A stretch of 64,000 nt of DNA from Solirubrobacterales bacterium (lineage in GTDB: Bacteria > Actinomycetota > Thermoleophilia > Solirubrobacterales > 70-9): positions 1 through 64,000 of the forward strand of contig SHVA01000005.1 of the NCBI GenBank assembly GCA_009691195.1. The letters run 5' to 3'. The stretch's first letter is position 1; each line of letters begins with the position of its first letter. The position numbers were made by a program, and so were the translations under genes. Below the pieces are notes generated by a model that worked only from the letters and a program-made list of their open reading frames with translations, had not been told where the DNA came from and searched no databases. This document shows positions 6,817 through 8,921 of this stretch, one piece after another.

Positions 6817-7191
6817 ATGAGGATCAAGACGCTGGTGGCGCTTGTGGTGACGGCGGCGGGTCTGGCGGTCGCTTCGGGAGGCGCGGTGGCCGCCCAGCAG
6901 CCATCCTTTTCGACGGAGGTCGCCTTCGCGGGGCCGTTGTTCGGCGATCCGTTCAACGGAGTCCTGTTCGGGCGCGTGGCATCTCCCAAGTCCGCCTGCG
7001 TGCCGGGGCGCACGGTGAAGCTCTTCGAGGACGGGGCGCTGCTCGACACCGACAGGACCAGCGCGAAGGGCGCCTGGGCCGTGTTCGTTTCTGAGGTGCC
7101 CGACTCGTCCGAGGCCCGCGTCGTCAAGCGCGTGCTCGGCAAGCGCGGGCACCGCTTCGTCTGCCAGGCGGGCTCGCTGCTGATCGACTGA
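6817..7191 (+). CDS. Small secreted hypothetical protein
   Basis: A 124-residue protein with a clear Sec signal peptide (MRIKTLVALVVTAAGLAVAS, cleavage near AVAAQQ at about 26-28). The mature part carries two Cys (in SACVPGRTVKLF and RFVCQAGS) that could form a disulfide. The pattern GRVASPKSACVPGRTVKLFE with DTDRTSAKGAWAVF resembles a carboxypeptidase-regulatory-like beta-sandwich of the kind found in actinobacterial exported proteins. Function is unknown. It starts 30 bases after the protease gene, so co-transcription is possible. Confidence 0.6.
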   Translation: MRIKTLVALVVTAAGLAVASGGAVAAQQPSFSTEVAFAGPLFGDPFNGVLFGRVASPKSACVPGRTVKLFEDGALLDTDRTSAKGAWAVFVSEVPDSSEARVVKRVLGKRGHRFVCQAGSLLID

Positions 7192-7274: not shown

Positions 7275-7321
7275 TGGGTCCCTGATTATGGCCAGGGCCG
7301 GGCGGCGTATGATCGGCGCCG

Positions 7322-7672
7322 ATGGACTCCGGTTCCTCCCTCTCGCTCTGGTCCGAGGACTCCTACCTCTCGATCGCCTCGAAGGGGTCGTTCCTCTCGA
7401 TCGGCTCGGTCGGCTCGATCGCCTCGATCGGCTCGGTCGGCTCGATCGCCTCGGCCTTCTCCCTGGCTTCGGCCGCCTCGGTCGGCTCGGCGACCTCGGT
7501 CGCCTCGGCCGGCTCGGTCATGTCCGCCGCCAGCCGCAACTCAGTGATGTCGGCCCGCAGCATCGACGGTGTTCTCGGCGAGTACGGCACCCCCAGGGCG
7601 CGGCTGCTGAGCGCGGCGGCCCTGCTCTGCGCCGCCGCGGCCATCGGCGGCCTCGCCCTGCTTCGCCGCTAG
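7322..7672 (+). CDS. Serine-triplet-repeat protein with C-terminal membrane anchor
   Basis: A 116-residue protein with serine at every third position from residue 5 to residue 80 without a break, 26 serines in register. The residue after each Ser is mostly Ile/Val/Leu/Ala and the next mostly Gly or Ala, giving S-I-G-S-V-G-S-I-A units. The C-terminus is a hydrophobic helix (LLSAAALLCAAAAIGGLALL) ending in Arg-Arg, so it looks tail-anchored. Strict 3-residue periodicity suggests a solenoid or extended sheet. There is no signal peptide. Some other frames here are also open because of the tcg-nnc-ggc repeats, but only this one has the ordered repeat plus anchor. Function is unknown. Confidence 0.65.
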   Translation: MDSGSSLSLWSEDSYLSIASKGSFLSIGSVGSIASIGSVGSIASAFSLASAASVGSATSVASAGSVMSAASRNSVMSARSIDGVLGEYGTPRARLLSAAALLCAAAAIGGLALLRR

Positions 7673-7709: not shown

Positions 7710-8921
7710 GTGCGGATCCTCGTCACCAGCTCGCGCATGCCCTATGCGCTCGACATCATTCGCAAGCTCGCCGAGCGCGGCCACGACGTCTACGCCTCCG
7801 ACAACTACGACACGGCGCCGGGCAGCCACTCCAAGTACCTGAAGGGGCACACCGTCACCGCCTCCCCGTCGGGGGACCCCGAGGCCTTCGTGGGCGACGT
7901 CGAGTCCTACTGCTCGGAGAACGGGATCGAGCTGGTGGTCCCGTGCTTCGAGGAGGTCTTCTACCTCGCGGCCCAGCACGAGCGCCTCTCCGGCGTCACC
8001 AAGGTCTACGCCCCTCCCTTTGCGACGCTGGCCCGCGTCCACGACAAGGCCAGCTTCGAGTCGCTGGCCGACAAGCTCGGTATCCGGGCGCCGCAGACGA
8101 TCGTCGCTCACACCCAGGAGGAGCTGACCGACGCGATCGGGAAGTTCCCCCGCTTCTTCGCCCGGGCCGCCTTCTCACGAGGCGGCGTCGGCCTGTTGAC
8201 CAACACGGGCCCGCTGGCCGGGGCGATGGACGCCTCCGACGCCCACCCGACCGAGGCGTCGCCGTGGCTGGTCCAGGAGTTCGTGGACGGCCCGATGCAG
8301 TGCACCTACGCCACCATCCACGAGGGGCGGGTCGTCACCCACGGCGCCTACCGCGCCCCGCGGCAGTGGGAGCACAGCACCGGCATCCAGTTCGTCTCGG
8401 TGGACCCGAAGCCCTCGCTCGAGGCCGTCAACAAGATCGTGGCCGAGCTCAACTGGACCGGCCAGATGTCGCTCGACTTCGTGGACACCGACGACGGCCT
8501 GGTGATCATCGAGTGCAACCCCCGCGGCACCGACGGCGTCCTGCTGATGGAGGCCGAGGAGCTGGAGCGTGGCGTGCTCGGCGGCGAGGGGGAGACGCTG
8601 CTGATCGAGCCCGGCCGCGAGGTGCAGCTCGACTTCGCCGTCTTCGGGCAGGCGTTCCGCGAGCCGATCAAGGAGATGCCCGCCTCCTTCCATGACCTGA
8701 TGCACATCAAGGGCTCCGACTCCGGCTGGCGCGACGCGCTGCCCACCCTCTACTCGGCGCTCTCCTTCGCCCACCACGCGCGACTCAACTGGGGCCAGCG
8801 CAAGGCGCTGCTCGCCGCGATGGCTGACGGGATCACCTGGGACGGCCAGCCGATCCCCGGGCTCCCGCCCGACGACGCGAAGCTGCTCGCCGAGCTCACC
8901 GGCGATCGCCCGCCGGGGTGA
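7710..8921 (+). CDS. ATP-grasp carboxylate-amine ligase-like protein
   Basis: A 403-residue protein from GTG 7710. The N-terminal pre-ATP-grasp Rossmann domain begins MRILVTSSRMPYALDIIRKL and contains SDNYDTAPGSHSKY. The ATP-grasp fold follows: HDKASFESLADKLGIRAPQT, a Lys/Arg-poor lid (FARAAFSRGGVGLL), PWLVQEFVDGP, and the metal-binding IIECNPRGTDG. This is the architecture of carbamoyl-phosphate-synthase-like ligases that join a carboxylate to an amine through an acylphosphate; the substrate is unknown. It lies between the serine-repeat gene and an alpha/beta hydrolase, in the same direction with short gaps, so a small pathway is plausible. Confidence 0.85.
   Translation: MRILVTSSRMPYALDIIRKLAERGHDVYASDNYDTAPGSHSKYLKGHTVTASPSGDPEAFVGDVESYCSENGIELVVPCFEEVFYLAAQHERLSGVTKVYAPPFATLARVHDKASFESLADKLGIRAPQTIVAHTQEELTDAIGKFPRFFARAAFSRGGVGLLTNTGPLAGAMDASDAHPTEASPWLVQEFVDGPMQCTYATIHEGRVVTHGAYRAPRQWEHSTGIQFVSVDPKPSLEAVNKIVAELNWTGQMSLDFVDTDDGLVIIECNPRGTDGVLLMEAEELERGVLGGEGETLLIEPGREVQLDFAVFGQAFREPIKEMPASFHDLMHIKGSDSGWRDALPTLYSALSFAHHARLNWGQRKALLAAMADGITWDGQPIPGLPPDDAKLLAELTGDRPPG

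What the first reader, a model, noticed from the sequence alone, without database searches (positions are those of the whole stretch)
7322..7672. Tail-anchored protein with Ser at every third residue for 76 residues
26 serines are in unbroken register from residue 5 to 80, with aliphatic residues after them and Gly/Ala before the next. Such strict period-3 repetition plus a C-terminal membrane helix is rare. It could form a solenoid, a polyproline-II-like bundle, or a patterned surface for phosphorylation or ice/ligand binding. It sits before an ATP-grasp ligase, which might modify it.
Basis: partly seen in the sequence, partly recalled or inferred. Interest (0 to 1): 0.62.

Follow-up and report, generated by a model that had tools for sequence, protein, structure and literature searches.

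The report
Actinobacterial serine nonapeptide-repeat membrane-anchored protein
A small bacterial protein whose chain carries a serine at every third position, built from whole nine-residue blocks and usually ending in a membrane anchor, turns out to belong to a real, conserved but undescribed family found across many Actinobacteria, whose shape and job are still unknown.

Summary
In detail: window 7322-7672 encodes 116 residues with 26 serines in unbroken register (S5-S80) and a C-terminal hydrophobic helix. It is a real gene. Same-frame relatives occur across Actinomycetota (415 confirmed stretches in one genome scan; the 80 kept are Thermoleophilia, Acidimicrobiia and Actinomycetes, mostly Streptomyces). 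They are under purifying selection.

It is a nonapeptide, S-x-L-S-[IV]-G-S-[VA]-G, between an N-terminal cap (S-L-W-S-x-D-S) and a C-terminal cap (R-W-S-V-L-S-W-R). Cap-to-cap spacings are 39, 48, 57 or 66 residues, so whole nonapeptides are gained or lost. Register serines are replaced only by Cys, Ala or Gly, never Thr, which argues against phospho-acceptor or ice-binding ladders. Most members carry a -10 box placed for a leaderless transcript. There is no conserved neighbourhood; the ATP-grasp gene is coincidental. No Pfam or PDB relative exists; the only NCBIfam match worth naming is a sub-threshold one to HxsA4. AlphaFold2 does not resolve the repeat.

Most likely it is a membrane-tethered, self-associating repeat rod facing the cytoplasm. 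Family, module and promoter placement are shown by sequence; fold and function are inferred.

The parts
7308..7313 (+). -10 promoter element TATGAT, placed for a leaderless (0-2 nt leader) transcript
   Evidence: Sequence. 80% of 80 relatives have xAxx[AT]T ending at -7/-8 of the start codon against about 5% of neighbouring ORF starts. In the window it ends at -9. No Shine-Dalgarno and no sigma-70 -35 hexamer.
7322..7669 (+). Serine nonapeptide-repeat protein, 116 aa (stop codon 7670-7672)
   Evidence: homologues; selection test
7334..7363 (+). N-terminal cap S-S-L-S-L-W-S-E-D-S (residues 5-14)
   Evidence: Conserved S-x-L-S-L-W-S-x-D-S across the family
7361..7531 (+). Nonapeptide repeat core, residues 14-70: SYLSIASKG, SFLSIGSVG, SIASIGSVG, SIASAFSLA, SAASVGSAT, SVASAGSVM, then SAA
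   Evidence: Triplet table, cap distances 3 mod 9, 27-nt DNA array
7532..7561 (+). C-terminal cap SRNSVMSARS (residues 71-80), equivalent of S-R-W-S-V-L-S-W-R-S; starts 66 residues after S5
   Evidence: Alignment A3; spacing counted by hand in the window, the class of most relatives
7595..7663 (+). C-terminal transmembrane helix, about residues 92-114, flanked by Arg
   Evidence: Hydropathy; the only confident part of the AlphaFold2 model, helix 91-115 with pLDDT up to 95

Best explanation
The gene encodes a member of an undescribed actinobacterial family of small repeat proteins. Shown by sequence: (1) a capped array of nonapeptides S-x-L-S-[IV]-G-S-[VA]-G in strict Ser register, lacking acidic or basic residues for about 50-60 residues; (2) in most members a C-terminal transmembrane helix and no N-terminal hydrophobic signal; (3) its own -10 element placed for a leaderless mRNA; (4) no conserved partner gene nearby. 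Inferred: the helix tethers the protein to the cytoplasmic membrane with the repeat in the cytoplasm. The repeat adopts a three-residue-per-turn or solenoid-like rod in which Ser forms one tightly packed polar face and V/I and Leu/Gly form the others. Several chains pack side by side through these faces into a membrane-attached oligomer or scaffold whose length is set by the number of nonapeptides. On this reading it acts as a stand-alone structural element and not as an enzyme or enzyme substrate.
For: Family and register. 1225 of 1238 triplets begin with Ser; replacements are Cys 7, Ala 4, Gly 2, Thr 0, all small, as expected of a packed face. Hydropathy power peaks at 120 degrees with a second peak near 40 degrees, the nine-residue period. 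Cap-to-cap distances are 39, 48, 57 or 66 in 63 of 64 distinct cores. Longest stretch without D/E/K/R: median 58 aa, window 50 aa; no Pro in the window's residues 1-80. C-terminal helix in 56 of 77 members by hydropathy and confident in AlphaFold2. Purifying selection. Leaderless -10 box. No conserved neighbours across 80 loci.
Against: AlphaFold2 gives no confident fold for the repeat in two runs with 60 and 38 sequences, so it could be disordered as a monomer. No oligomer test was possible. About a quarter of members lack a strong C-terminal helix, so membrane attachment is not universal. Charges flanking the helix are nearly symmetric (mean +2.4 before, +2.1 after), so orientation is not fixed by the positive-inside rule. 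The conservation figures come from sequences found with motif searches, so they lean towards members that keep the motif.
Confidence: 0.4

Rival explanations
1. The repeat is an intrinsically disordered, elastin/silk-like low-complexity tether that forms condensates or gels at the membrane; register and nonapeptide length reflect 27-nt DNA slippage plus weak selection on composition.
For: AlphaFold2 pLDDT mostly below 50 in the repeat. A 27-nt DNA tandem array is present. Composition is S/G/V/A/I/L, like silk and elastin peptides (established knowledge).
Against: Near-absolute Ser register with only Cys/Ala/Gly replacements, TCN/AGY codon mixing at conserved Ser columns, specific caps, and 9-residue quantisation between caps although 9-nt slippage is also available point to a structural constraint.
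Confidence: 0.25
2. The uncharged repeat inserts in or on the membrane, for example as a Ser-striped 3-10 or alpha-helical hairpin forming a pore or a small membrane toxin.
For: 50-60 residues without charges and hydropathy maxima near 1.5. Trp residues in both caps. AlphaFold2 places a low-confidence helix at 39-72. Patchy distribution without conserved neighbours.
Against: No toxin or defence family match.
Confidence: 0.15
3. The repeat is a substrate: regularly spaced Ser are phosphorylated, glycosylated or otherwise modified (first reader; also Hxs-like peptide maturation).
For: Ser density. Sub-threshold NCBIfam match to His-Xaa-Ser repeat protein HxsA4 in 55 of 60 members, best E 3.5e-5.
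Against: Thr never replaces Ser although it is one base change from TCN; Ala, Gly and Cys do. No His-x-Ser repeat. No HxsC above cut-off in the genome (29.8 against 267.9 bits). No conserved modifying enzyme nearby. ATP-grasp not linked.
Confidence: 0.08
4. Spurious ORF over a GC-rich simple repeat.
For: 27-nt tandem DNA repeat with other long open frames on both strands.
Against: Conserved homologues, purifying selection, serine codon-family mixing and a positioned promoter element.
Confidence: 0.02

Closest known systems
PE_PGRS polyglycine-II domains of mycobacteria (PMC9436101)
   Same: Actinobacterial, low-complexity, period-3 triplets; tolerate indels; associated with a membrane (mycomembrane).
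   Different: The PGII model needs Gly pointing inwards in the triplet; here the invariant residue is Ser and Gly alternates with Leu. No PE domain. The paper reports that AlphaFold predicts PGRS as packed sandwiches; it does not resolve this repeat.
His-Xaa-Ser repeat proteins (HxsA4, NCBIfam NF038313)
   Same: Ser at every third residue; weak profile similarity.
   Different: No His repeat, score far below cut-off (17.5 against 55 bits for P0001), HxsC not found in the genome.
Snow flea antifreeze protein and other G-x-x polyproline-II bundles (from memory)
   Same: Strict period 3.
   Different: Every third residue is Gly there; here Ser. No secretion signal.
RTX beta-roll nonapeptides and hexapeptide left-handed beta-helices (from memory)
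   Same: Short repeats of 9 or 6 residues with aliphatic positions.
   Different: No GGxGxD calcium motif. The [LIV]-[GAED]-x-x-[STAV]-x hexapeptide phase is not met by S-V-G-S-V-G on inspection. Odd and even module numbers both occur.
Bactofilins (from memory)
   Same: Membrane-associated repeat proteins that polymerise: a functional analogy only.
   Different: No sequence match in Pfam and a different repeat.

Membership tests
Actinobacterial Ser-nonapeptide family (defined here) | Ser register with S-x-L-S-[IV]-G-S-[VA]-G modules | tested here: met
   the window's later modules are degenerate (Ala for Leu or Gly)
Actinobacterial Ser-nonapeptide family (defined here) | N- and C-terminal caps 3 mod 9 residues apart | tested here: met
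   66 in the window (S5 to S71, counted by hand, with N for W in the C-cap); 63 of 64 distinct cores
Actinobacterial Ser-nonapeptide family (defined here) | leaderless -10 element | tested here: met
   TATGAT 7308-7313, two bases further upstream than in most relatives
Hxs (His-Xaa-Ser) peptide system | HxS repeat precursor above family cut-off | tested here: not met
   17.5 against 55 bits; no His in the repeat
Hxs (His-Xaa-Ser) peptide system | HxsC radical SAM enzyme | tested here: not met
   29.8 against 267.9 bits in the genome
PE_PGRS / polyglycine-II | inward-pointing Gly in the triplets | tested here: not met
   Third triplet position is Gly in 515 of 1238, Leu in 369
PE_PGRS / polyglycine-II | N-terminal PE domain | tested here: not met
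   No Pfam match for the window protein; one stray sub-threshold PPE match (E 0.06) among 60 relatives
Ice-binding repeat proteins | Thr-rich flat ladder | tested here: not met
   No Thr at register positions
Tail-anchored membrane protein | single C-terminal TM helix and no N-terminal signal | tested here: met
   by prediction only; insertion and orientation not tested

The most novel reading that the evidence does not exclude
A new class of repeat protein: Ser-faced three-fold-helical rods, built from whole nonapeptide modules and capped by Trp motifs, that bundle on the inner face of actinobacterial membranes and form a previously unrecognised scaffold made from leaderless mRNAs.
Probability: 0.2. 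Interest if true: 0.78.

Novelty: new variant of a known kind. Interest (0 to 1): 0.5.

Why it matters
A strict one-in-three Ser repeat with quantised nine-residue modules has no match in Pfam or the PDB, yet it occurs in roughly a quarter of sampled Streptomyces genomes and in scattered genomes of other actinobacterial classes. AlphaFold2 cannot model it. It is a compact, genetically simple (single-gene, apparently leaderless) test case for how a non-Gly triplet repeat folds and what such proteins do at the actinobacterial membrane.

Tried and rejected
Plasmid and phage tblastn found nothing, but the BLAST low-complexity filter probably masked the repeat, so this is uninformative. The viral contig scan matched patterns but no relatives. 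The second DNA match in the own genome (G000:C3) is the antisense of a coiled-coil gene, not a paralogue. Weak E-value hits of the SVGSVGS type (L048-L050, L055) are simple repeats and were left out. PDB profile hits are to Kinesin light chain fusion constructs at E 0.004-0.009, which I take to be Ser/Gly linkers. tRNA adjacency, seen in the window, is not general: 3 of 27 relatives' loci have any tRNA. Defence and phage family libraries gave no match. The first genome contigs alignment was too divergent to search with. Literature search for the repeat strings found no relevant paper.

Full report
Observation. The window (inside an assembly of 2.32 Mb, 60 contigs, 92.65% complete) encodes at 7322-7672 a 116-residue protein with 26 Ser in unbroken three-residue register from S5 to S80 and a C-terminal hydrophobic helix.

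It is a gene. Homologues in the same frame are found in 8 of 299 genomes of the class and, with a small alignment, in 35 of 396 of the phylum (some weak hits there are simple repeats). One scan of named genomes gave 459 pattern matches, of which 415 encode a relative; the 80 kept are from Solirubrobacterales, Acidimicrobiia, Streptomyces, Kitasatospora, Actinotalea, Cellulomonas, Blastococcus, Modestobacter, Kribbella, Micromonospora, Parafrankia and others. Over 170 closely related pairs, codon positions 1/2/3 differ at 0.12/0.08/0.35 per codon, and the observed/expected non-synonymous to synonymous ratio is about 0.21. 14 of 21 near-invariant Ser columns use both TCN and AGY codons. The amino acid is therefore selected.

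Anatomy. Counting triplets over 61 non-redundant members, 1225 of 1238 begin with Ser; the rest are Cys 7, Ala 4, Gly 2, and Thr never. The middle position is V/I/A/L. The third position cycles Leu, Gly, Gly, so the unit is the nonapeptide S-x-L-S-[IV]-G-S-[VA]-G. The core definition demands mostly Ser, so the 99% is biased upward, but the nature of the replacements is not. The array lies between an N-cap S-x-L-S-L-W-S-x-D-S and a C-cap S-R-W-S-V-L-S-W-R-S. The cap-to-cap distance is 39, 48, 57 or 66 residues in 63 of 64 distinct cores, always 3 mod 9, although DNA slippage units of both 9 and 27 nt are visible. In the window the distance is 66 (S5 to S71, counted by hand; its C-cap has N for W). 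In the window the repeat lacks D/E/K/R for 50 residues (family median 58) and residues 1-80 hold no Pro. A C-terminal TM helix is clear in 56 of 77 members and weak or absent in the others. Charges on the two sides of the helix are nearly equal, so topology is open.

Expression. 73 upstream regions aligned on ATG show a sharp element at -12 to -7 (A at -11 78%, A at -8 73%, T at -7 79%) and no Shine-Dalgarno or -35 signal. xAxx[AT]T ends at -7 or -8 in 80% of 80 family members against about 5% of 755 neighbouring ORF starts; the latter are crude first-start calls, so the contrast is somewhat overstated. Such spacing puts the transcription start on the start codon (inference; no transcript data were available). 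Leaderless mRNAs are common in Streptomyces coelicolor (264 mapped, PMC4681348), so the mode is not unusual, but its conservation suggests that the gene is an independent transcription unit. The window has TATGAT at 7308-7313, two bases further upstream than in most relatives.

Context. Gene families near 80 relatives do not recur: the most frequent is at 9 loci, in mixed orientation, and flanking orientations are mixed. The downstream ATP-grasp gene (7710-8921, nearest NCBIfam model PRK06849 below its cut-off) has relatives in only 3 of 50 genomes of the taxonomic family. The other genomes with the repeat gene (G041, G678, G667) lack it, and the other genomes with the ATP-grasp (G136, G093) have no repeat gene. 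The proposed enzyme-substrate link is not supported.

Structure and mechanism. Two AlphaFold2 runs with 60 and 38 aligned relatives give pLDDT around 40-55 in the repeat and 80-95 in the C-terminal helix, so the fold is unknown. A strict 120-degree periodicity produces coherent faces only in three-residue-per-turn conformations or in a solenoid of nine-residue units. Replacement of Ser only by small residues suggests a packed polar face. The lack of charges suggests that the surfaces meet other chains. I therefore favour a membrane-tethered self-associating rod. This step is inference, with a disordered low-complexity tether as the main rival.

Known relatives. Pfam, PHROGs and PADLOC have no match worth naming for the proteins tested. 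The NCBIfam HxsA4 match is far below cut-off; the repeat has no His and HxsC is missing. PE_PGRS domains (PGII model, PMC9436101) are the nearest described actinobacterial period-3 repeats but need Gly where this family has Ser. I rate it a new variant of the period-3 repeat kind and an undescribed family, as far as these libraries and the paper searches go.

Noticed in passing
window 7710-8921: The ATP-grasp gene itself has a possible leaderless promoter (TAGCCT, about 7 nt before its GTG start) and is very sparsely distributed in its own taxonomic family (3 of 50 genomes).
   Followed up: partly
L024, L027, L031, L036, L039-L042: A sister type with SAGSILSIG nonapeptides, with variable C-terminal parts (TM helix, acidic/Pro repeats, or none) and other N-termini, in the same phylum.
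   Followed up: partly
L009, L010, L011 (genus g89): TM-less variants with the C-terminus R-R-D-G-A-I-L-N-R, conserved between a vitamin-B12-type ribonucleotide reductase-like gene and a quinone oxidoreductase-like gene (names from memory of N-terminal sequences).
   Followed up: no
window 6817-7191: Small protein with a probable signal peptide and two Cys, without a Pfam or NCBIfam match, between an FtsH-like AAA/M41 gene and a tRNA-Val.
   Followed up: no
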